Below, in pieces: positions 1,682 through 13,335 of a stretch of 15,072 nt of DNA. The number at the start of each line of letters is the position of its first letter. Positions within the stretch are counted from its first letter, which is position 1. The notes below the pieces were generated by a model, which had not been told where the DNA came from, did no database searches, and saw nothing but the letters and a program-made list of their open reading frames with translations. The stretch covers positions 1 through 15,072 of the forward strand of contig JAIPJR010000062.1 in the NCBI GenBank assembly GCA_021734045.1, given 5' to 3'. A program made the position numbers and the translations under genes. This DNA is from Fidelibacterota bacterium. GTDB lineage: Bacteria; Fidelibacterota; UBA8477.

Positions 1682-4600
1682 ATGTACCGTCATTCCTATC
1701 TTTCGTTTTTAACGGCAATTCTTGTATTTGCAACAACTGCGTTTGGTCTTCAGCCGGTAAAACCGGATGCTGTACCGGTAAATCGGACTGAGATTTTGTT
1801 GCCCGCCCGAATGCAGGTGGCGAATCCTGCCGGGTCGATGGCAAACCAGATTACAACCAACCGTGAAGGTCTGCAGGCGGTTCTGCAGCACGTGGATAAC
1901 CAGGCGGAGTATTATCTGGGTAGTGGAGATGCAGGGGATACGCTGGCCGTTGTGTTTACACCCGATGCACCGGCACGGGTGAAAGAAGTGTACGTTCAAT
2001 GGTATGACGCTGGTACGATAGAAGCCTTTGCTGCGGATTACAGTGCTGCTGCAGCTACACTGAGTAGTGATGGTGAAGTGAGTGCATTTGATCGCGGGAC
2101 ACTGGATATCAGCCCCATCGGTGCGCATCGCACATCGGTGACAATGAATACCATTGACGGGTACACCACTGATTGGTCGGCACTGCTGGATATTGGCGGT
2201 GAATTTGTGGTGGGGGACAGCACTGATATCAACAGTCGTGAATCATTTGTCATTGCCTTGGTGAAATCAGGTGCCACACCGCATCCACTGGCTGATGGCA
2301 CCGATGATCAGGGTAATTTAACCTACACCTGGACGGGTGGTCCCTGGACAGGCGGCATGTGGGGTAAATACGGTGCCTCCGATATTATGATGCGCGTAGT
2401 GGTCGAGTATCCCTGGGGAGGTCCCATCACTGTTTCAAGTCTGAGCGCATTAAATAATACTTTTAATACCACTGGTCCTTTCACCGTTTATGCTGAGTTG
2501 CAGGACGATGTGGAGGGGACCATTGCTATAGATGGCAGTGATAATGTAGCGCTCATTGGGACGGCTAATGGTGATACACTGATCTACACAAGTGGTACCC
2601 CCACCAATGTGGACGCCGCCGGAAACGGCCTTTATAGCTTTACGTTCAGTGGGGCCTATTCACCGGGCACCGAAATCGAATATTTCATACGTACGATCGA
2701 TAATACCGGGATTCGCTCCGAGTCCATGCATCGCTCGTTTCAAATCAAAGCGCCACAAAATCCCACGGCTGACATGCTATTTATTGTCGATGGTCAGCAG
2801 TCTCAAATGGATCTGTATCAAATAACGGCGAATTGGAACGGCATTGATTATGTGTACTGGAATGTTCAAGCCGAAGGCGGCATTGATGCTTCCGTTATCA
2901 ACTACGGCTGGTCCAATATTGTCATCTACGGCTGGGGTAACCAAACCCTGCCGGTAGTCAGTGGCGATCCGGATCCGGGCTATGCTGATTTTATGGATGC
3001 CGGCGGAAATCTGGTCCTCATTGATCAGGATTGGTTTTACGGTCATGGTTTGGGACCAGACCTGGACTTTTCGTCAGGTGATTTTGCCTATGATTACTTT
3101 GGATTGTCAGGCGGAACCAGTGACCCGGAACTGGGTGGTATTGGTGCGGCGGATTCAAGCTATCTGGGCATCAGCACGACGCCCATGGACACACCCTTTC
3201 AAACCGATCCCATGATTTTGCGGCACGGTGACTGGGGAACCCTTAACTGGGCTGACTATCTGGTGGCCGGGAGCGGAACGCCTGTTTTCCAGGGAAGTAT
3301 TGACGGCAACCATTATGGTGTGGTTTATGAAAATGGCGTATCAAGAGGCGCTGTGTTCAGTTTTCTGGCGGACGCTGCTGTGGAAGTACAGGAGAATGGC
3401 TCGGTCAGCTTTAATCAGTTCTGGACATTTTTTAGCGGTGTTCTGGAATGGCTGGGCTATGCACCTAATGGCATGTCCATTCACCAGGCACGATTTGAAC
3501 CGCTGGGTGAAGTGGTGACTGTGCGGGGTACGGTAACGACACCGAATTTCGACATCCCCGGCTCTCGTTCTGAGTATGCACTCCAGGAAGGTTTGGACGG
3601 CATCATCCTGTATTCTAATGCCTTTGATGCTGGTTTGAGCGTGGGTGATTATGTCGTGGTTACCGGAACGCTCACAGAATACAGAGGCAAACTGGAGCTC
3701 GTTCCAGCCGGCATTGAGGATATTCGTGTCCAGGGAACCAGTGCTTTGCCCGAGTTTCAAACGATTTCCATTGCCGATCTGGTGGCGGATCACAATCAGT
3801 ATGAGTCGGAATTAGTCCGAATCGAAAATGCCTCCATCGTGGACGGCGCATGGCCCAATCCGGGCAGTGACGCCAACCTGCAGATTTCCGATCCGTCAGG
3901 TGCCATAGTGACCATGCGCGTGGATAAAGAGACCGATGTAGATGATAATCCGGCACCGGCAAATCCATTTATCGTGCAGGGCATTGTGGGTGATTTCGAT
4001 GGTCCCCAGATTTTGCCCCGTGCGTATAGTGATTTTCAGCCGTTCGAAACCGGCATGATAACCTTCCAGGCGGACCTTACCACATTCATTCAAAATGGCT
4101 GGTTTGACCCATCAGGTGAAGGTGATTCCATCGTGGTGAATGGTGATTTCAATGGTTGGAATTCCACTGAACGGATGACGCCCAATATCCAAAATCCAAA
4201 TATTTATACCATGACCATTCCCAATACGGGGAATCCCGGTGACCAGTGGGGCTGGAAGTTTCGTTTGTTTCCCAGAACAACCTGGGCTAACGATGGCTGG
4301 GAAATAGGAGATAATCGCATTCTAGACATCCAGGCAGGTGATATGGTGCTGCCACCGATTGAGCCAGCATGCTCCTACCAACCTACTGAACTCATTTCTC
4401 AGGATGTGCTGGTCACCTTCCGGGTGAATCTGATGGATGCGATTAACTTCAACAATTCGCAGCCTTTCAATTCGCTTGAATCGGTGTGGCTTAATGGTGA
4501 TTTCGTCACGGAATCCGGCTGGGCCGGCTGGACGGAAAATGACACGGTAAATATGGTACGCCTGTATGACGACGGCACCAATGGTGACGCCGTTGAAGGT

Positions 4601-7600
4601 GATCATATCTGGACTGCCCAGGTGAATTTCACCAGCGGATCCAGCGCATACCATTTTTACAAATACGCCGCCTACGATCCTGCTCATCAGGATACCACCA
4701 TTCTGATTGACAATGAATCGGGATTTGGGGATGATCACGCCGTGATGATTGACGATTCTGCACCCACCTATGATGCGGGCATCGATATCTGGAAAACCCG
4801 TAATCTGGATATAAGGAGCATTGCGGATGTGCGTCAAATGCCAGATGGCGAAGTGGTGACGGTTTCCGCAATCGTTACATCACCCAATTTTGGTGATGGC
4901 TATTCAGAATACACGATTCAGGATGAATCAGCGGGTATCGTATTGTTTTCCAACGCCTTCAGCGCAGACTTGCAAGTGGGACAGGAAGTTATTGTTACTG
5001 GTCAACTGCTTACTTATGCCGGTAAGTCAGAGATCGTTCCTGCCGATCCTTCTGCTATTCAGATTGTCTCCAGTGGTAACTGGATAGAACCGGTACCGGT
5101 CATGGCTGCTGATCTGACCTATGAGATGGGTGAGATGCTGGAGTCGATGCTGGTACAGATGAGCAATGTGGAAATTATTGAAGGCGCATGGCCACCTGCG
5201 GGCAGTAATGCCAATCTCACTATCTATGATGGTAGTGGCGCCACCACCATGCGTATTGATAAAGAGACGGATATTGATGACAATGCTCAGCCGGAGGGGC
5301 AGTTTGGTCTGCTGGGTGTCATTTCCCAGTTTGACAATTCTGAACCATTTGACGCAGGCTACCAGATAATGCCCCGGTTTTACAGTGATTTTCAGCAGGG
5401 TGGCGTGGCGGCAGATGTCACTTTCCAAGCTGATCTGACAGCGTTTATTGAAAACGGCTGGTTTGATCCGCAAAATCCGGATCATCAGATTGTTGTCAAT
5501 GGGGATTTCAATGGTTGGAATGCCACCGAGGTCATGACACCGTTGGACGAAAATCCCAATGTTTACACTTATACTGTAGCTATAGTCAATAATCCGGGTG
5601 CGGAAATCCGTTGGAAATTCCGTATGAGTCCGGCTTATTTGTGGCAGGATAGTGGCTGGGAAATCGGTGCGAATGATGCGTTTACCTTCACCGGCGAAGC
5701 GATGGTGCTACCGCTCCGTGAGCCCAATTGCGCCTATAATGCACCCTTGAGTCAGGCGGTTACGGTCACATTCCAGGTGGATATGAGCGGTGCCCAGAGT
5801 TTCCAGACCGGTCAACCCTTTGATAACCTGCAGTCCGTGTGGATGAATGGCGATTTCGTATCAGCGTTCGGCTGGGCTGGCTGGACGGTTGATGACACCA
5901 CAAATATGATCCGTCTGTACGATACCGGTACAAATGGTGACCTGGTGCCGCAGGATGGCATTTGGAGTGCTGAGGTTGCATTTCCGGAAGGTTCGGGCAG
6001 CAGCCATTATTACAAGTATGCGGCTTATGATCCGGACAATATGAGTCTGGAAAATCCCGAGCCCATGGACAATGAAGCCGGGTGGGGAATGAATCATCAC
6101 GTTGATGTAGATGATACCAATCCCGTATTTCTACCGCCGGTAGATATCTGGGCTTCCGGTATTGAGTTGACGATTTCCATTGCCGAAGCCAGAGCCGCTG
6201 AATTAGGATCAACGGTTACGGTTCAGGGAATAATCACCAGTCCCAATTTTGGAACATCCGGATCCATGACTGAATACACGCTGCAGGATGAATCCGCTGG
6301 TATTGTTCTGTTCTCCAGTGCCTTTGATGCCGGTCTGCAGCCGGGAGATGAAGTGAAGGTTACGGGTGAAATTGCTGAGTATAATGGCAAAATGGAGATC
6401 ATTCCGGCAGAGCTGACCAATGTCCAATTCATCAGCTCCGGCAACGATCTGCCACCCTTTCAGACGCTCACCATCATGGCGCTGAACACAGAGTGGAATG
6501 CGTATGAATCTGAATTGGTTGAGATCCTGGATGTTGAGATTGTGGAAGGCGTTTGGCCCGAACCTGGCAACAATATGAATCTGCTTATTACCGACGCAAC
6601 CGGTGAGACGCTGACGATGCGGGTGGATAAGGAAACCGATGTGGATGATAATCCGGCACCCGTACAGCCCTTCACACTGCGTGGTGTGGTGGGCGATTTC
6701 AATAACCCACAGGTGTTGCCGCGTTTTTACAGCGATCTGATCCAGTCTGATCCCGAACTGAGCCATTTTGAACTGGTGTACGCCGGGAACCCATACCTGG
6801 CCATGAATTTCTATGTCACCAGTGCTACCATCGGTGGCGAAATGGTGAGTGTGGGTGATGAGATTGGTATTTTTGACGGTGAGCATTGTGTGGGCGCCGG
6901 CGTTGTCACGGCCTCAATCACCGATTATCTGGCCCTGGTTGCTGCTACGGACGACCCCGGCACGCCGGAAATTGATGGATTTACACCCGGTAATAACATC
7001 TCTTATCGAATTTGGGATGCATCCGAAGGGGTGGAAATCTCCAGCGTCTCAGCTGATTACACGTTGGGTGACGGGACATTTGCCAGTCAAGGAACGGCCA
7101 TGATTGAGTTGACCGGCTCCACCAGCATTGACATGAATCTCACGCTGGCAAGTGGCTGGAACATCGTCTCCTTCTACACCTTACCGGATGCCACCGATCT
7201 CCAGGACATTATGCAGCCACTAATGGACAATGGTAGCCTGCTGAAGGTTCAGGACGAAAGTGGGGCAGCCATGGAAGAGCTGCCGGTAATGGGCTGGATT
7301 AACAATATCGGCGAAATGAATCTGACCGAAGGCTATTATGTGAAAATGGCCAATAACGCTGAATTGACAGTTAGTGGTGCGCCGGTGGGACTACCCTTCA
7401 CGGTACCATTAAATGGCGGCTGGAATATCATGGGCTACCCGCTTTCGATTAGCCAGGATGCCCTGACAGCCGTTCAGGATTTGATTGACGCAGGTGTCCT
7501 GCTCAAAGTCCAGAATGAATCGGGTGCGGCATTGGAAGAGCTACCTGTACTGGGTTGGGTCAACAATATCGGCAATCTCCTTCCCGGGAAAGGCTATTAC

Positions 7601-8341
7601 ATCAAAATGTCCGCCGATGCTGATCTGGTGTTGAATACAGCGCCGGCACTGGCACGCAGTATTCCGGTGAAAACAGTCGAGCCCGGACGGCATTTCTATC
7701 TGGAAGATGAGGGGAATCCTTATCTGGCCATGAATGTCTATGTCATGACAGCCACGCTGGATGAAATGCCATTGGGCGCCGGGATGGAAATTGGTGTATT
7801 TGATGGTGACCGGTGTGTTGGATCTGCACGATTGACAGAGACATTGGTCCGGGAAGATGTCTATCTGCCGCTCATTGTTGGCATGGATGATCCGCTCACC
7901 CAGGTAGTGGAAGGATTCACCGCCGGGAATGCGATAACTTTCCGCGTCTGGACCGGAGAGAAGGAGCAACCACTGGGCGCCACCATTCTCACGGAGCAGG
8001 GGTCGCTGGCTTTTGAAGCCCAGAGCAGCCTGGTAGTGGATCTGAGTGGCGTGACCATTCCGGACAGCTATGCGCTCTATGATTGTTATCCCAATCCTTT
8101 TAATCCGTCCACCACGATTCGGTACGATTTGCCCCAGGATACACGGGTGGCATTAGTCATCTATGATGTGCTGGGTCGCGAAATTCGCCAACTGGTGGTT
8201 GGTCATGAGAATGCCGGCGAAAAAACAGTGATTTGGGATGGTCGGGATAACTTTGGCCATACAGTACCCAGTGGCCTGTATGTGTACCGTCTGCAGGCAG
8301 GAGATTTCAGTAAGGTGAAGAAAGCCTTGTTCATCAAATAA
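1682..8341 (+). CDS. Giant modular exported protein with OB-like, CBM-like and sorting domains
   Basis: This is a 2219-residue secreted protein of unknown function. A good Shine-Dalgarno (AGGGGG) precedes the ATG. Residues 1-22 form a signal peptide (MYRHS, a hydrophobic core, then TTAFG). Residues about 75-250 and 250-360 are beta-rich domains. About 363-600 resembles a class I glutamine-amidotransferase-like fold (VLIDQDWFYGHG) with no visible catalytic Cys. A block then repeats. An OB-like domain occurs at 600-790, 1042-1242 and 1495-1693. A pair of GDFNGW-type carbohydrate-binding-like beta sandwiches occurs at 792-1040 and 1244-1491. The GNPYLAMN module is at 1695-1813 and 2001-2122, flanking two GWN repeats (1816-1988). 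The C-terminus (2128-2219, Y2136PNPFNPSTTIRYDLP) is a FlgD-like/type IX-style sorting domain. Cysteines are very few. The next gene shares modules with it and starts 53 bp downstream, so the two are probably one operon. A role in adhesion or polymer binding is inferred. Confidence 0.9.
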   Translation: MYRHSYLSFLTAILVFATTAFGLQPVKPDAVPVNRTEILLPARMQVANPAGSMANQITTNREGLQAVLQHVDNQAEYYLGSGDAGDTLAVVFTPDAPARVKEVYVQWYDAGTIEAFAADYSAAAATLSSDGEVSAFDRGTLDISPIGAHRTSVTMNTIDGYTTDWSALLDIGGEFVVGDSTDINSRESFVIALVKSGATPHPLADGTDDQGNLTYTWTGGPWTGGMWGKYGASDIMMRVVVEYPWGGPITVSSLSALNNTFNTTGPFTVYAELQDDVEGTIAIDGSDNVALIGTANGDTLIYTSGTPTNVDAAGNGLYSFTFSGAYSPGTEIEYFIRTIDNTGIRSESMHRSFQIKAPQNPTADMLFIVDGQQSQMDLYQITANWNGIDYVYWNVQAEGGIDASVINYGWSNIVIYGWGNQTLPVVSGDPDPGYADFMDAGGNLVLIDQDWFYGHGLGPDLDFSSGDFAYDYFGLSGGTSDPELGGIGAADSSYLGISTTPMDTPFQTDPMILRHGDWGTLNWADYLVAGSGTPVFQGSIDGNHYGVVYENGVSRGAVFSFLADAAVEVQENGSVSFNQFWTFFSGVLEWLGYAPNGMSIHQARFEPLGEVVTVRGTVTTPNFDIPGSRSEYALQEGLDGIILYSNAFDAGLSVGDYVVVTGTLTEYRGKLELVPAGIEDIRVQGTSALPEFQTISIADLVADHNQYESELVRIENASIVDGAWPNPGSDANLQISDPSGAIVTMRVDKETDVDDNPAPANPFIVQGIVGDFDGPQILPRAYSDFQPFETGMITFQADLTTFIQNGWFDPSGEGDSIVVNGDFNGWNSTERMTPNIQNPNIYTMTIPNTGNPGDQWGWKFRLFPRTTWANDGWEIGDNRILDIQAGDMVLPPIEPACSYQPTELISQDVLVTFRVNLMDAINFNNSQPFNSLESVWLNGDFVTESGWAGWTENDTVNMVRLYDDGTNGDAVEGDHIWTAQVNFTSGSSAYHFYKYAAYDPAHQDTTILIDNESGFGDDHAVMIDDSAPTYDAGIDIWKTRNLDIRSIADVRQMPDGEVVTVSAIVTSPNFGDGYSEYTIQDESAGIVLFSNAFSADLQVGQEVIVTGQLLTYAGKSEIVPADPSAIQIVSSGNWIEPVPVMAADLTYEMGEMLESMLVQMSNVEIIEGAWPPAGSNANLTIYDGSGATTMRIDKETDIDDNAQPEGQFGLLGVISQFDNSEPFDAGYQIMPRFYSDFQQGGVAADVTFQADLTAFIENGWFDPQNPDHQIVVNGDFNGWNATEVMTPLDENPNVYTYTVAIVNNPGAEIRWKFRMSPAYLWQDSGWEIGANDAFTFTGEAMVLPLREPNCAYNAPLSQAVTVTFQVDMSGAQSFQTGQPFDNLQSVWMNGDFVSAFGWAGWTVDDTTNMIRLYDTGTNGDLVPQDGIWSAEVAFPEGSGSSHYYKYAAYDPDNMSLENPEPMDNEAGWGMNHHVDVDDTNPVFLPPVDIWASGIELTISIAEARAAELGSTVTVQGIITSPNFGTSGSMTEYTLQDESAGIVLFSSAFDAGLQPGDEVKVTGEIAEYNGKMEIIPAELTNVQFISSGNDLPPFQTLTIMALNTEWNAYESELVEILDVEIVEGVWPEPGNNMNLLITDATGETLTMRVDKETDVDDNPAPVQPFTLRGVVGDFNNPQVLPRFYSDLIQSDPELSHFELVYAGNPYLAMNFYVTSATIGGEMVSVGDEIGIFDGEHCVGAGVVTASITDYLALVAATDDPGTPEIDGFTPGNNISYRIWDASEGVEISSVSADYTLGDGTFASQGTAMIELTGSTSIDMNLTLASGWNIVSFYTLPDATDLQDIMQPLMDNGSLLKVQDESGAAMEELPVMGWINNIGEMNLTEGYYVKMANNAELTVSGAPVGLPFTVPLNGGWNIMGYPLSISQDALTAVQDLIDAGVLLKVQNESGAALEELPVLGWVNNIGNLLPGKGYYIKMSADADLVLNTAPALARSIPVKTVEPGRHFYLEDEGNPYLAMNVYVMTATLDEMPLGAGMEIGVFDGDRCVGSARLTETLVREDVYLPLIVGMDDPLTQVVEGFTAGNAITFRVWTGEKEQPLGATILTEQGSLAFEAQSSLVVDLSGVTIPDSYALYDCYPNPFNPSTTIRYDLPQDTRVALVIYDVLGREIRQLVVGHENAGEKTVIWDGRDNFGHTVPSGLYVYRLQAGDFSKVKKALFIK

Positions 8342-8394
8342 ACGGCAAACCGATAAAGGCTAATGTGAATGGCAATTCAGAAAGGAATGAATAC

Positions 8395-11028
8395 ATGAAG
8401 AGGCTATTAATTCTGATGGGATTGTTCGGTTTGCTGACGGGAATCACCTGGGGACAGACGCATTTCCAGACCGTTTACAGTGGAAATCCTTACCTGGCCA
8501 TGAATATCTACGTGACCAGCGCAGTGATAGAAGATGTAGCCCTTACAGCAGGGGATGAAATCGGCATATTCGACGGTGAGTACTGTGTCGGTGCCGCGGT
8601 GGTGGAAGGGGACATTGACCCCTATCTGGCCATGGTGGCGGCTACCGATGAAGCCGGTACTCCGGAAGTGGATGGTTTCACACCTGGTAATGCCATCATT
8701 TTCAAAATTTGGGATTCTGAAAATGACATGGAAATCACCGATGTTGCCGCGACTTACGCGCTGGGGGACGGAACCTTCGCCTCCCAGGGTTCCGCCATGG
8801 TTGATTTGGTGGGAAGTCTGCCGGAAGACCATTTCACACCGGTCTATTTTGGCAATCCCTATCTGGCCATGAACTTCTATATCACAGCCGCATCCATTGA
8901 CGATGTTGAGCTGGGTGCCGGAGATGAAATTGGCATATTCGATGGTGATGTGTGTGTGGGAGCCGGTGTTTTATCTGCTCCCATCGGGGATTACGTGGCG
9001 CTGGTGGCGGCTACCGATGATCCGGGCACGCCGGAGATTGACGGATTCACGCCGGGCCACACCATCAGTTACCGACTCTGGGACGCGGGTCAGGAACTTG
9101 AAATCGAAAATGTGGAGGCCGTTTACGCGCTGGGGGATGGGATTTTTGCATCCCAGGGCAGCGCCATGGCTGACTTAATCGGGAGTACCAGCGTCTCGGG
9201 TCCGGTGGTGGTTTCACCCCTGGCGGATCTGACCCTGCCTGAGGATAATCCTGTCATGGACATTGCTGATCTGGATACGGTATTTGAAGATCTGGATCCG
9301 GAGGAAACCCTCGCCTACAGTGTATCCAATACGGAATCAGCTGTACAGGTAACCATTGGGGAAGGTGCCCTGCTTCAACTTGAATTGACTGCCGACTGGT
9401 TCGGTGAGGATGTTATCGTTGTCACCGCGACCAATTCGGTGATGGAAAGTATCTCCGATGAATTTACCCTCACGGTCACTCCCGTGAACGATCCGCCGCA
9501 GGCTTTCCCGCTCATCTCTCCGGAAAATGGCGCTTCACTCAGCACGCTGTCGCCGGCATTTTCCTGGCAGGCCGCCAGCGATATTGATCCGGATGATGTG
9601 GTTACCTACCGATTATATTTAAGCACGGATCCTGAAAATTACCTGCAGGTTTACGCCGGTTCAGAAACATCCTGGACCCCAACAGAACCTTTGGAGGATA
9701 ACAGTACGTACCACTGGCTGGTAAGTGCGGTGGATATGGCGGGAGACACGGTGGCAAATACCGGTGGTAGTCGGCATTTCTTTTTGAATCTGGAGAATGA
9801 GTCACCCCAGCCATTTGATCTTATCTCACCGGAAAATGACGCCATGCTCAGCACGCTGCAGCCTCAATTCCTCTGGCATCCGGCCCCGGACATTGATCCT
9901 GATGATGTGTTGACTTACCGACTTTATCTGGGGACAACCATTGAGGACTTCGCCCGCGTATATGAAGGTACGGACACGACCTGGACGCCTGCAGAATCAC
10001 TGCTGGATAACAGCAGCTACTACTGGATGGTGAGTGCCGTGGATCCCTCCGGAGATACGGTGGAGAATATTGATGGTGCCAGCCATTTTTATCTGAATGC
10101 TGAGAATGAAGCGCCTTCTGTTGTTGAATTGGTGACGCCCACCGATAACAGTGTAGAGGTGGTTCTCACGCCGGAATTCTACTGGGAGGCAGCCACTGAT
10201 CCGGATCCGGGCGATACGCTGATGTACGATCTGCTCATTGCCGTGGATACTGTCATGACGGATCCTCAGATCATCACCACGCCGGACCACGAGTGGATTC
10301 TGGAAACGCCATTAATGGATAATGGCGAATATTACTGGCAGGTGATTACCAGGGACCTGGCCGGTCTGGAAACAGCCAGCGAGGTGTACCGGTTCTGGAC
10401 GAATACGGAATTGGAACCACCCAATCCGTTTGAGTTGCTCTCACCGCCGGACATGGCGCAGGGGCTGACCACAACGCCGGCGTTTATTTGGGAAACTGCA
10501 ACGGATAATGACCCCCGGGACTATGCGGTTTATACACTCATGGTGGCTGAGGACAGTGCCTTTGTGTCCATCGTCCTCACCGCAGAAGCTTTAACTGACA
10601 CGGTTTTCACGCCCTCGGAAGGACTGTCCGAGAATACCCGGTACTGGTGGAAGATAATTGCCATGGATACGGATTCGCTGACGACCGAGTCGCCGGTGCA
10701 GACCTTCACGGTGGGGTATGTGGCCACTGAACCCGAAGCAGCGATCCCCACAAAGTTTGCGCTGCATACGAACTATCCCAATCCCTTCAATCCTACCACC
10801 ACGATCCGGTACGATTTGCCGGAACCGAGTCAGGTACGCTTGACCATTTATAATCAGCTGGGTCAACCGATCCGGACGCTGGTTCATGGGGAGAAATCTG
10901 CCGGTTTCCAGTCAGTGGTGTGGGATGGACGGAATAATGTAGGTCAACAGGCTGGAACGGGCATTTACTTTTACCAAATCAATTCTGGTAAATTCAACCA
11001 AACCCGGAAGATGATCCTGCTGAAATAA
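8395..11028 (+). CDS. Modular exported protein with FN3-like repeats and C-terminal sorting domain
   Basis: This is an 877-residue secreted protein of unknown function. The frame is open from a GTG at 8365, but ATG 8395 is preferred: AAAGGA lies 8 nt upstream and the protein then begins with a classic signal peptide (MKRLLILMGLFGLLTGITWG). Two GNPYLAMN modules follow (about 23-141 and 145-267), each with GDEIGIFDG, CVGA, GTPE(V/I)DGFTPG and LGDG(T/I)FASQGSAM. Next is an Ig/cadherin-like region (269-369), starting LPEDNPVMDIADLDTVFEDLDPEE. Four fibronectin-III-like repeats (about 369-775) follow, with recurring FxLxSPxxG, FxWxxAxDxDPxD, and YxWxVxAxD positions. The end (Y794PNPFNPTTTIRYDLP to IYFYQINSGKFNQTRKMILLK) is a FlgD-like/type IX-style sorting domain. 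It probably shares a transcript with the 2219-residue protein upstream and is closed by a strong terminator. A surface or extracellular binding role is inferred. Confidence 0.9.
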   Translation: MKRLLILMGLFGLLTGITWGQTHFQTVYSGNPYLAMNIYVTSAVIEDVALTAGDEIGIFDGEYCVGAAVVEGDIDPYLAMVAATDEAGTPEVDGFTPGNAIIFKIWDSENDMEITDVAATYALGDGTFASQGSAMVDLVGSLPEDHFTPVYFGNPYLAMNFYITAASIDDVELGAGDEIGIFDGDVCVGAGVLSAPIGDYVALVAATDDPGTPEIDGFTPGHTISYRLWDAGQELEIENVEAVYALGDGIFASQGSAMADLIGSTSVSGPVVVSPLADLTLPEDNPVMDIADLDTVFEDLDPEETLAYSVSNTESAVQVTIGEGALLQLELTADWFGEDVIVVTATNSVMESISDEFTLTVTPVNDPPQAFPLISPENGASLSTLSPAFSWQAASDIDPDDVVTYRLYLSTDPENYLQVYAGSETSWTPTEPLEDNSTYHWLVSAVDMAGDTVANTGGSRHFFLNLENESPQPFDLISPENDAMLSTLQPQFLWHPAPDIDPDDVLTYRLYLGTTIEDFARVYEGTDTTWTPAESLLDNSSYYWMVSAVDPSGDTVENIDGASHFYLNAENEAPSVVELVTPTDNSVEVVLTPEFYWEAATDPDPGDTLMYDLLIAVDTVMTDPQIITTPDHEWILETPLMDNGEYYWQVITRDLAGLETASEVYRFWTNTELEPPNPFELLSPPDMAQGLTTTPAFIWETATDNDPRDYAVYTLMVAEDSAFVSIVLTAEALTDTVFTPSEGLSENTRYWWKIIAMDTDSLTTESPVQTFTVGYVATEPEAAIPTKFALHTNYPNPFNPTTTIRYDLPEPSQVRLTIYNQLGQPIRTLVHGEKSAGFQSVVWDGRNNVGQQAGTGIYFYQINSGKFNQTRKMILLK

Positions 11029-11083: not shown

Positions 11084-11166
11084 ACATGTCCAAGAAATGC
11101 CAATACATCGATATGTTCTGGTCATGTGTCTTTGAATTAGATATGACTTAGTTGCCCATACAGGCA

Positions 11167-11245
11167 CCCGAATTCCTGGTCGTCATGTAGACCATATAAT
11201 CAATATGCTGACAAATGATCTCACCGTTTCGAGGGCCCGGGGGTG
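11167..11245. repeat. Left copy of 79-bp direct repeat flanking fic
   Basis: This copy matches 12632-12710 in the same orientation at 74 of 79 positions with no gaps. A 43-base core in the middle is identical. It contains a small hairpin, TGGTC/GACCA with an 8-nt loop, and a GC-rich end around GGGCCCGGGGGTG. On the minus strand both copies can be read as part of a short open frame containing NGEIICQHIDY, but neither extends into a gene. It may be a dispersed intergenic repeat or a cassette boundary; which one cannot be told from one window. Confidence 0.85.
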
Positions 11246-11296
11246 GTTAGGTCTCTCTTATTTTATAGATCCACATATCGATATATTGCAATATTG

Positions 11297-11306
11297 TAGA
11301 CATGTT
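11297..11306 (+). promoter_or_regulatory. TAGACATGTT motif overlapping the fic leader
   Basis: This exact 10-mer lies immediately upstream of the fic Shine-Dalgarno. It recurs at 12498-12507 and 12534-12543, and inverted at 12549-12558. A near copy, TAGACATATT, is at 12605-12614. Its placement suggests an operator, possibly for the Fic protein's own C-terminal winged helix, but this is inference. Confidence 0.35.
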
Positions 11307-11318
11307 TAGGAGAACAGG

Positions 11319-12461
11319 TTGAGTATCTGTATATTAAGTTACTTCAACAAAAAGAAATGGCTTATGAATACCACATCTGATCCGTACAAACCCTACAATG
11401 ACCTTCCACGGTTACCGCCCCCCGTCGAGATAGAAACCAAGGCTGTCTTGCGGAAAACCACTTCGTGTGGGCGAGCGCTGGCTGAATTAAAGGGTATTGG
11501 CCGGGTTATTCCCAACCAGGCTCTGCTGATTGACTCGCTGATCCTGCAAGAAGCCCGGGCCAGTAGCGAGATTGAGAATATTGTTACAACTTCAGATGCG
11601 GTCTACAAAGCTTTCAGTGCCCAGACCAGTCAGATTGACCATGCAACCAAGGAAGTACTCCGGTATCGAGAGGCACTGTGGTACGGCTTCAATGAGTTGC
11701 AGCGGCAGCAAGTGCTCAGCACGAACCTGTTTGTGAAATGTGTTCAGATTATCCGAGAGAATAAAGCTGGCATCCGCAAGACTCCCGGAACCAGGATCGT
11801 TAATCAGACCACCGGTGATGTCATCTATACACCACCGGAAGGAGAGCAACGAATCCGTGAACTACTCCACGATCTTGAGCAGTTTATCCATTCTGAAGAC
11901 GGGATCGATCCCCTGATCAAAGTAGCCCTCATTCACTACCAGTTCGAAGCTATCCATCCCTTTAGTGATGGAAATGGCCGTACCGGCAGGATCATTAACC
12001 TGCTCTACCTTTCACTTAATGACCTTCTGGACTATCCGGTGCTGTACCTCAGTAAATATATCATCGAGAATCGGGCGGAATACTACCGATTGCTCCGGGG
12101 AGTCACGATCAATCAAAGCTGGGAACCATGGATACTCTATATGCTGGCGGGCATCGAACAAACGGCAAATTATACCCGTGATAAGATTCTGGCCATTAAG
12201 GATCTAATGGATGCGACCACAGAAAAAGCTCGTAATCAATTACCAGGCAATGTGTTCTCAAAGGAGTTGATCGAACTGCTTTTTGAGCGTCCTTACACGA
12301 AGATCCAGTATTTAACCGACAAAGGCATTGCCAAGCGCGAGACAGCATCCAAGTATCTTAAAGTTCTGGAAACGATACACATTCTCAAGAGTCAGCGGGT
12401 TGGTAAGGAAACACTGTTCCTGAATACGGGCCTCTATAATCTTCTGTCCCGTTCGAATTGA
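11319..12461 (+). CDS. Fic family protein adenylyltransferase with N-terminal inhibitory motif and C-terminal winged helix
   Basis: Fic proteins transfer AMP from ATP to hydroxyl side chains of target proteins. The catalytic motif HPFSDGNGRTGR (residues 213-224) matches HPFx(D/E)GNGRxxR in full, with the base His213 and the phosphate-binding loop intact. The class II inhibitory motif SSEIEN (82-87, pattern S/TxxxEN) precedes it, so the protein should be self-inhibited through Glu86. The N-terminal PYNDLPRLPPPVEIETKAVL segment is a Fic_N region. A winged helix (about 318-375, PYTKIQYLTDKGIAKRETASKYLKVL) ends the protein, as in SoFic-like proteins. The TTG at 11319 is used because AGGAG lies 6 nt upstream. 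ATG 11364 (giving 365 residues) has no Shine-Dalgarno but fits the usual family N-terminus, so the start is uncertain. There is no adjacent antitoxin gene, as expected when inhibition is internal. The gene sits alone between 79-bp direct repeats. Confidence 0.93.
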   Translation: MSICILSYFNKKKWLMNTTSDPYKPYNDLPRLPPPVEIETKAVLRKTTSCGRALAELKGIGRVIPNQALLIDSLILQEARASSEIENIVTTSDAVYKAFSAQTSQIDHATKEVLRYREALWYGFNELQRQQVLSTNLFVKCVQIIRENKAGIRKTPGTRIVNQTTGDVIYTPPEGEQRIRELLHDLEQFIHSEDGIDPLIKVALIHYQFEAIHPFSDGNGRTGRIINLLYLSLNDLLDYPVLYLSKYIIENRAEYYRLLRGVTINQSWEPWILYMLAGIEQTANYTRDKILAIKDLMDATTEKARNQLPGNVFSKELIELLFERPYTKIQYLTDKGIAKRETASKYLKVLETIHILKSQRVGKETLFLNTGLYNLLSRSN

Positions 12462-12520
12462 CTTCATACGATCCTGCGTCGTCATACATTACTTTAATAG
12501 ACATGTTCATGTTCATGCTT

Positions 12521-12582
12521 CATATCGATTGCTTAGACATGTTATGTGAACATGTCTAAGCAATGGTGATAATTTCGATATG
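12521..12582. repeat. Nested inverted repeat downstream of fic
   Basis: The inner arms ATTGCTTAGACATGTT (12528-12543) and AACATGTCTAAGCAAT (12549-12564) are perfectly complementary over 16 bp around the loop ATGTG. Outer arms CATATCGA (12521-12528) and TCGATATG (12575-12582) are also complementary, with an asymmetric spacer. No T-run follows, so it is not a typical intrinsic terminator, although it could act as a transcript-end hairpin. A two-fold operator or a transposon-like end are alternatives. Confidence 0.8.
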
Positions 12583-12631
12583 TAATGGATTCATGATAAT
12601 GCCATAGACATATTCCACCGCCTATTCAAGC

Positions 12632-12710
12632 CCCGAATCCCTGGTCGTCATGTAGACCACATAATCAATATGCTGACAAATGATCTCACCGTTTCGAGCC
12701 CCGGGGGGTG
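12632..12710. repeat. Right copy of 79-bp direct repeat flanking fic
   Basis: This copy differs from 11167-11245 at 5 of 79 positions: two isolated transitions and three changes in the GC-rich end. A TCGATATG motif ends 49 bp before this copy and 51 bp before the left copy. The duplicated unit may therefore once have been about 135 bp long, with its outer part now diverged. Confidence 0.85.
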
Positions 12711-12828: not shown

Positions 12829-13107
12829 ATGGCCAACACCATACCCCGTAAACCGGAGGAAACCCTGGCGTTATTGGATCAGATGATAAATGGGGTGGAG
12901 AAAAACCGGGCTGACCTGGGAACCTATGCCGATGAGCTGCTAAAACGGTTTGTGCCGATTCGGGATAACCTCCGGGCAGCCATACAGAAACGCACCGAAA
13001 CGGCCGGCTTGGCACGCCAGGCTACCCAGGTGATCAACGACAATCAAAATCCCCGGCCAATGATATGTATTTTTCCCGGTTCACTTCGTAAGATATTTTT
13101 TCGATAG
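12829..13107 (+). CDS. Small helical protein of unknown function, possibly C-terminally truncated
   Basis: This is a 92-residue protein with an AAGGGG Shine-Dalgarno about 7 nt before its ATG. Residues 1-72 look like a real, hydrophilic helical or coiled-coil domain: MANTIPRKPEETLALLDQMI followed by charged heptad-like stretches, with no Cys and no membrane segment. The last 20 or so residues (NPRPMICIFPGSLRKIFFR) have a very different composition and could be out-of-frame readthrough after a deletion or frameshift. I recall longer (about 200-residue) helical proteins with a similar KPEExLALxxxIxxG start, but could not check this here. It lies just outside the right 79-bp repeat. No function can be assigned. 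Confidence 0.6.
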   Translation: MANTIPRKPEETLALLDQMINGVEKNRADLGTYADELLKRFVPIRDNLRAAIQKRTETAGLARQATQVINDNQNPRPMICIFPGSLRKIFFR

Positions 13108-13250
13108 TTACAGCTGATAACGGGGTAAATTCAATTCAATTCAAGTATTAAAACCTGGGATGCTAATCTGTCCAGGGCAGCGGCAGTGGCCGCAGTCACC
13201 TTCGTTGACCAAATTCGATTGATTCGATGTTGGATGAAGAAAAAGGGCAG

Positions 13251-13335
13251 TACCCGGGGCCGGACTCGAACCGGCACGCCTTTAAGGGGCGAAGGATTTT
13301 AAGTCCTTTGTGTCTACCAATTCCACCACCCGGGC
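13251..13335 (-). tRNA. tRNA-Leu (anticodon UAA)
   Basis: The minus strand folds as an 85-nt class II tRNA. The acceptor stem GCCCGGG pairs with CCCGGGT (last pair G-U) with discriminator A. The D region is TGGTGGAATTGGTAGACA. The anticodon stem AAGGA/TCCTT holds the loop CTTAAAA, giving anticodon TAA. A long variable arm (CGCCCCTTAAAGGCG) follows, then the T arm GCCGG-TTCGAGT-CCGGC. CCA is not encoded. It lies downstream of tRNA-Cys on the same strand. Confidence 0.96.

What the first reader, a model, noticed from the sequence alone, without database searches (positions are those of the whole stretch)
11167..12710. fic gene bracketed by 79-bp direct repeats: a possible mobile or exchangeable cassette
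Two same-orientation copies (11167-11245 and 12632-12710), 74/79 identical with an uninterrupted 43-base identical core, enclose a single Fic AMPylase gene and its control sequences. No transposase or integrase is visible. A solitary toxin-like gene between long direct repeats suggests either capture by recombination between dispersed intergenic repeats or an uncharacterised cassette boundary. The core is more conserved than expected for neutral non-coding DNA.
Basis: partly seen in the sequence, partly recalled or inferred. Interest (0 to 1): 0.6.

Follow-up and report, generated by a model that had tools for sequence, protein, structure and literature searches.

The report
Fic defence gene between operator arrays
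The repeats around this bacterial toxin-like gene are real but private to one genome; the general feature beneath them is a rigid array of DNA docking sites that accompanies this gene family from groundwater bacteria to E. coli and is probably read by the toxin's own DNA-binding end.

Summary
The 79-bp direct repeats are real (74/79 identical; longest identical run 38, not 43) and are the outer half of a ~162-bp repeat. They occur only twice in the genome and in no relative. They do not define the fic cassette: a congeneric genome has the same fic unit beside the same tRNA-Leu without them. The homologous block there (11274-12615) runs almost exactly from array to array.

What recurs is an array of half-sites (A[CT][AG]TGTCGA-like), built of short and long palindromes in a fixed register (half-site centres 14, 16 and 24 bp apart). 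The four-site register was significant in 77 of 93 SoFic-type loci and in 11 of 27 fetched later; an E. coli Sofic gene has ten half-sites in register. Half-site sequence changes with the recognition helix of Fic's C-terminal winged helix (K instead of Q/E goes with TGTCCA instead of TGTCGA), pointing to Fic itself as reader. Arrays cover the fic start, or follow its stop; in type I restriction operons they lie just before hsdR or hsdS.

Best reading: an accessory SoFic anti-phage gene with autoregulatory operator arrays, here degenerate and flanked by a private duplication. DNA binding is inferred, not measured. No cassette machinery was found.

The parts
11364..12461 (+). fic: SoFic-type Fic AMPylase, 365 aa, with N-terminal Fic_N, Fic and C-terminal winged-helix (SoFic-like_C) domains
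   Evidence: Pfam PF13784, PF02661, PF21248; PADLOC SoFic E 4e-117; PDB SoFic full length
11562..11579 (+). class II inhibitory motif SSEIEN (aa 67-72)
   Evidence: sequence; motif class from PMC10628234 and PMC12249575
11955..11990 (+). catalytic Fic motif HPFSDGNGRTGR (aa 198-209)
   Evidence: sequence
12339..12341 (+). recognition-helix residue E326 (K-R-E-T-A-S), the position that covaries with the half-site base
11084..11116 (.). long palindrome, ACATGTC-N19-GATATGT, left outer array
   Evidence: pattern search, 2 matches against 0.04 expected in the window; half-site scan
11123..11147 (.). degenerate short palindrome in register with the one before
11167..11245 (+). 79-bp direct repeat, copy 1; part of the ~162-bp repeat 11084-11245
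11273..11305 (.). long palindrome before fic; left end of the block shared with G001
12519..12543 (.). short palindrome, downstream array
12549..12584 (.). long palindrome, downstream array (one base longer than the standard spacing)
12590..12614 (.). short palindrome, downstream array; right end of the block shared with G001
12632..12710 (+). 79-bp direct repeat, copy 2; part of the ~162-bp repeat 12550-12710
13250..13335 (-). tRNA-Leu (UAA) beside which fic lies in this genome and in G001
   Evidence: ARAGORN

Best explanation
The locus is an accessory SoFic-type anti-phage gene carried as a unit with its own operator arrays. Fic dimers, through the C-terminal winged helix, dock on inverted half-sites arranged as alternating short and long palindromes in one rigid register, and thereby hold down transcription of fic, or of the next gene (for example hsdR) where fic sits inside an operon. 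In the window the arrays are degenerate and lie on both sides of fic. The 79-bp direct repeats are a private duplication of the stretch at the outer end of the array. They are a by-product of local rearrangement, for example tandem duplication of a fic-array unit followed by loss of one fic between palindromes, and not a recombination site. Shown here: arrays, register, association with fic, covariation with the recognition helix, an empty site in a relative, absence of the repeats in G001. Inferred: Fic binding, repression, and the duplication history.
For: Rigid four-site register (14-16-24) above the 99th percentile of 580 control windows in 77 of 93 SoFic-type loci and above the control maximum in 63; altered geometries give 2-25. 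11 of 27 later loci pass. E. coli D7 Sofic: ten half-sites in register, the last overlapping the start codon. Half-site sequence differs between loci but is shared within an array. Recognition-helix position 326 is the top protein column for half-site bases 7 and 8; K with C 3/3, Q/E with G 47/47, Fisher 5e-5, on several separate branches of a tree built without that domain; two later RKTA proteins also have TGTCCA sites. In the window 14 of 22 half-site matches fall in the 496 bp flanking fic. Homology with G001 ends at the arrays. A related Fic protein, CccR, binds inverted repeats in its promoter and represses itself (PMC9755527).
Against: No binding or expression data for any SoFic. In the window the four-site test is not passed (5.5 against 6.17) because the array is degenerate. 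Downstream arrays without a near downstream gene are hard to read as operators. Arrays also occur without fic near a tyrosine recombinase in G006 and in G021. The palindrome parts of the 162-bp repeat are much more diverged than the 79-bp part, which a single recent duplication does not explain.
Confidence: 0.7

Rival explanations
1. The palindromes or the 79-bp repeats are recombination sites, and fic is a gene cassette inserted and excised by a site-specific recombinase acting in trans.
For: Short palindromes resemble paired recombinase sites with a spacer; two arrays bracket a tyrosine recombinase gene in G006; the block shared with G001 ends at the arrays; fic is patchy.
Against: Most loci have an array on one side only (55 upstream, 23 downstream, 5 both). 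Half-sites covary with the Fic recognition helix. The 79-bp repeat exists in two copies only. No recombinase gene is apparent in the window.
Confidence: 0.12
2. The arrays act as RNA hairpins (terminators, stabilisers or an RNA antitoxin as in type III systems).
For: Tandem hairpins beside a toxin-like gene; palindromes could pair in RNA.
Against: All half-sites within an array share one sequence and exact spacing, which pairing in RNA does not require; they covary with the protein helix; arrays also lie upstream and over the start codon; no Rfam family matches.
Confidence: 0.05
3. fic came in with a small island at tRNA-Leu, and the direct repeats mark an old attachment site.
For: fic lies beyond the 3' end of tRNA-Leu in the window and G001; G001 has a 43-bp partial tRNA-Leu copy on the far side of fic; the empty site in G011 has the same tRNA.
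Against: The 79-bp repeat is not tRNA-derived and the window has no partial tRNA-Leu copy; no integrase.
Confidence: 0.1
4. One reading: fic captured by recombination between dispersed intergenic repeats.
For: Long direct repeats do flank fic, and recombination between them could delete it.
Against: Only two copies in the genome and none found in relatives, so the repeat is not dispersed.
Confidence: 0.03

Closest known systems
SoFic / Sofic single-gene anti-phage system (S. oneidensis SO_4266, PDB 3eqx; E. coli Sofic, PMC12249575)
   Same: Same protein family, domains, catalytic and inhibitory motifs; an E. coli Sofic-family gene also carries the array.
   Different: No operator array was described in the papers I could read; anti-phage activity of the window gene is untested.
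CccR of Yersinia pseudotuberculosis, a Fic toxin and autorepressor (PMC9755527)
   Same: Works alike: C-terminal helix-turn-helix, inverted half-sites at its own promoter, dimer binding.
   Different: One operator, 10-bp half-sites 26 bp apart (AGATAATCAT-N26-ATGATAATCT), and low sequence identity to SoFic; here alternating 14 and 24 bp centre spacings in a multi-site array.
CbFic2 of Coxiella burnetii (PMC10628234)
   Same: Class II Fic with C-terminal helix-turn-helix; DNA binding shifts its activity.
   Different: No specific DNA site known there; the paper notes that DNA binding by SoFic had not been shown.
Controller proteins of restriction-modification systems (from my own knowledge)
   Same: Works alike where the array lies just before hsdR: a DNA-binding regulator encoded next to a restriction gene.
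   Different: Here the candidate regulator is a Fic enzyme and the systems are type I; no regulation was measured.

Membership tests
SoFic / Sofic | Fic_N + Fic + SoFic-like C-terminal domain | tested here: met
   Pfam E 1e-25, 1e-16, 3e-27; PADLOC SoFic
SoFic / Sofic | catalytic HPFx[DE]GNGRxxR and class II inhibitory [ST]xxxE[GN] | tested here: met
   HPFSDGNGRTGR and SSEIEN
SoFic / Sofic | protection against phage | not testable with these tools
   needs an experiment
Fic autorepressor (CccR type) | C-terminal DNA-binding helix-turn-helix | tested here: met
   PF21248 and SoFic structures
Fic autorepressor (CccR type) | inverted half-sites at own promoter | tested here: met
   long palindrome 11273-11305 upstream of fic; arrays in relatives
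Fic autorepressor (CccR type) | half-sites 26 bp apart as in CccR | tested here: not met
   register is 14-16-24 between centres
Fic autorepressor (CccR type) | binding and repression | not testable with these tools
   only covariation with the recognition helix was shown
Integron-like gene cassette | site repeated beside many different genes in the genome | tested here: not met
   two copies only in the genome
Integron-like gene cassette | integrase gene at the array | tested here: not met
   none apparent in the window ORF list; a tyrosine recombinase beside arrays in G006 is separate
tRNA-integrated island | intact tRNA at one side, partial tRNA copy at the other, integrase | tested here: inconclusive
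   tRNA-Leu beside fic in both genomes; a 43-bp partial copy in G001 only; no integrase

The most novel reading that the evidence does not exclude
The arrays are more than promoters: they anchor several Fic dimers on the chromosome and keep the enzyme in its locked or deAMPylating state, so that the DNA itself acts as the antitoxin. Destruction or occlusion of host DNA during infection would release Fic. In restriction operons the same arrays would tie the Fic toxin to restriction enzyme expression.
Probability: 0.12. Interest if true: 0.88.

Novelty: new variant of a known kind. Interest (0 to 1): 0.6.

Why it matters
SoFic is a studied anti-phage toxin whose DNA-binding end has no known target in the literature I could read. 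The array gives a specific predicted target sequence, a predicted geometry and a one-residue specificity rule that can be tested directly in laboratory E. coli. It also suggests that some Fic proteins control type I restriction genes.

Tried and rejected
79-bp repeat as RNA: no Rfam match and no unusual folding (z 0.77, -0.58 and 0.80). 79-bp repeat as coding remnant: one frame reads TRIPGRHVDHIINMLTNDLTVSR with both internal differences synonymous, but no convincing homologue was found. Repeat in viruses: no exact match to a 31-base core. The first grid scan used wrong base-centred distances and is void; it was redone. Mutual information over all loci is dominated by the Bacteroidota clade, so it was repeated within R325 proteins. 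One Pfam batch failed on a wrong frame and was not repeated. Searches for papers on Fic operators found CccR and CbFic2 only, within an open-licence library.

Full report
Observation. The 79-bp direct repeats exist as described, except that the longest identical run is 38 bases. They are the outer, better conserved half of a repeat of about 162 bp (11084-11245 against 12550-12710). That genome of the window holds exactly two copies of the repeat. Two congeneric genomes hold none, and no exact match to a 31-base core was found in the viral collection.

The gene. The enclosed gene encodes an intact SoFic-type enzyme: Fic_N, Fic and SoFic-like C-terminal domain, PADLOC SoFic, full-length similarity to SoFic structures, with intact catalytic and inhibitory motifs. 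SoFic proteins are reported as single-gene anti-phage systems (PMC12249575).

Is it a cassette bounded by the repeats? fic is accessory: 27 of 245 genomes in the phylum carry a close homologue. G011 has the same gene order (groEL, tRNA-Cys, tRNA-Leu, T9SS-type gene) with about 66 bp where the window has 2.2 kb. But G001 carries the same fic unit (88% protein identity) beside the same tRNA-Leu without the repeats. DNA similarity between the two covers 11274-12615, ending about at the palindromes that flank fic. The left neighbours differ; in G001 there is a 43-bp partial copy of tRNA-Leu. So the 79-bp repeats are not the boundary of the unit.

The arrays. Reading the fic flanks of relatives showed repeated palindromes. 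A motif search without prior consensus gave half-site starts such as 0+,15-,30+,55-,70+,85-,100+,125- (L022) and 0+,25-,40+,55-,70+,95-,110+,125- (L101). A strict model, four half-sites with base-centred distances 14-16-24 or 24-16-14 and no assumed sequence, exceeds the 99th percentile of 580 control windows from the same contigs in 77 of 93 loci and the control maximum in 63. Altered geometries give 2 to 25; the two highest, 13 and 25, differ from the true geometry in one distance only. The loci span many phyla. A few of the 93 are the same locus fetched twice. Of 27 loci fetched later, 11 pass; most of those that fail belong to a divergent subgroup with VSRITA-like helices. An E. coli D7 Sofic gene has ten half-sites in long-short-long-short-long register, the last overlapping the fic start codon; 278 of 5426 E. 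coli genomes have a homologue of the Salmonella plasmid fic at about 72% DNA identity.

Who reads the array? Within an array the half-sites share a sequence; between loci it differs. The difference follows the recognition helix of the Fic winged helix: KRQTA or KRETA with TGTCGA, RKTA with TGTCCA, NLKTVG with CGAGGGTAA, RAAAS with TGTTCG. Among R325 proteins, alignment position 326 is the strongest protein column for half-site bases 7 and 8. K goes with C in 3 of 3 and Q/E with G in 47 of 47 unambiguous G/C cases (Fisher 5e-5; the test ignores relatedness). In a tree built without the helix domain the K residues lie on several separate branches. Two later loci with RKTA helices (L190, L191) also show TGTCCA half-sites. 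Other K proteins (L107, L140) have further divergent half-sites, never TGTCGA. One paper states that DNA binding by SoFic had not been shown (PMC10628234); the related CccR does bind inverted repeats and represses itself (PMC9755527).

Where the array sits. Of 83 non-duplicate loci with an array, 55 have it upstream, 23 downstream and 5 on both sides. Downstream arrays often begin at the stop codon (TAACATGTCG). A close co-directional gene precedes fic in 6 of 18 downstream cases against 1 of 45 upstream cases. In type I restriction operons the array lies between fic and hsdR (L104, L114, L124; 75-151 bp) or hsdS (L087; 174 bp). This fits an operator for whichever promoter lies there. Downstream arrays with no near gene, as in the window, remain unexplained; auxiliary operators or anchoring are possible.

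The window's arrays. A half-site profile built from other loci finds 22 matches in 15 kb, 14 of them in the 496 bp flanking fic (P about 4e-16). They form long (11084-11116) and degenerate short (11123-11147), then copy 1 of the 79-bp repeat, long (11273-11305), fic, short-long-short (12519-12614), then copy 2. The four-site test is not passed here (5.5 against 6.17) because of degeneration and one extra base. Both 79-bp copies thus lie at the outer end of an array segment. The simplest history is duplication of a fic-array unit with later loss of one fic, but this is inference. Homologous recombination between the 162-bp copies would delete fic.

Limits. No binding, expression or phage data; a draft genome; collections sampled by similarity; literature limited to open-licence papers. 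The identity of the 79-bp segment is unknown.

Noticed in passing
L171:430-625 and L174:1501-1565 (G006:C11): Half-site arrays without fic bracket a tyrosine recombinase gene (L171:772-1737, Phage_integrase E 2e-17). Another fic-less array lies in G021:C69 (L169:1501-1570).
   Followed up: partly
L171:655-722, L169:1590-1655, and fic flanks in L018, L020, L022: A recurring element GTCTCAAAAAGGGTGTCTCA...GGCACTATTTTGCAG...CTCAAAAACGGCGGTTATTGAGAC lies next to the arrays in several relatives; it could be a mobile-element end or an attachment site.
   Followed up: no
L061:1469-1511 (G001): A 43-bp partial copy of tRNA-Leu lies on the far side of fic from the tRNA gene (91% identical), as expected after island integration.
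   Followed up: partly
L087, L104, L114, L124: SoFic-type fic genes sit inside type I restriction operons with the array just before hsdR or hsdS.
   Followed up: partly
L211:1270-1445 (E. coli D7): Ten half-sites in register upstream of an E. coli Sofic-family gene; the last one contains the start codon.
   Followed up: yes
L197-L206, L208-L210: A subgroup of Fic proteins at about 45% identity (mostly VSRITA-like recognition helices) does not pass the array test; its sites may have another geometry.
   Followed up: no
window 11167-11245 and 12632-12710: One forward frame through both copies reads TRIPGRHVDHIINMLTNDLTVSR / PRIPGRHVDHIINMLTNDLTVSS, and both internal base differences are synonymous; no homologue was found.
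   Followed up: partly
window 12829-13107: A 92-aa ORF between copy 2 and tRNA-Leu without a Pfam match; its DNA (13031-13057) shares 27 bp with G001 beside the same tRNA.
   Followed up: partly
window 1682-8341 and 8365-11028: Two large proteins with repeated domains; the second has a FlgD_ig domain and a type IX secretion-type C-terminal tail.
   Followed up: no
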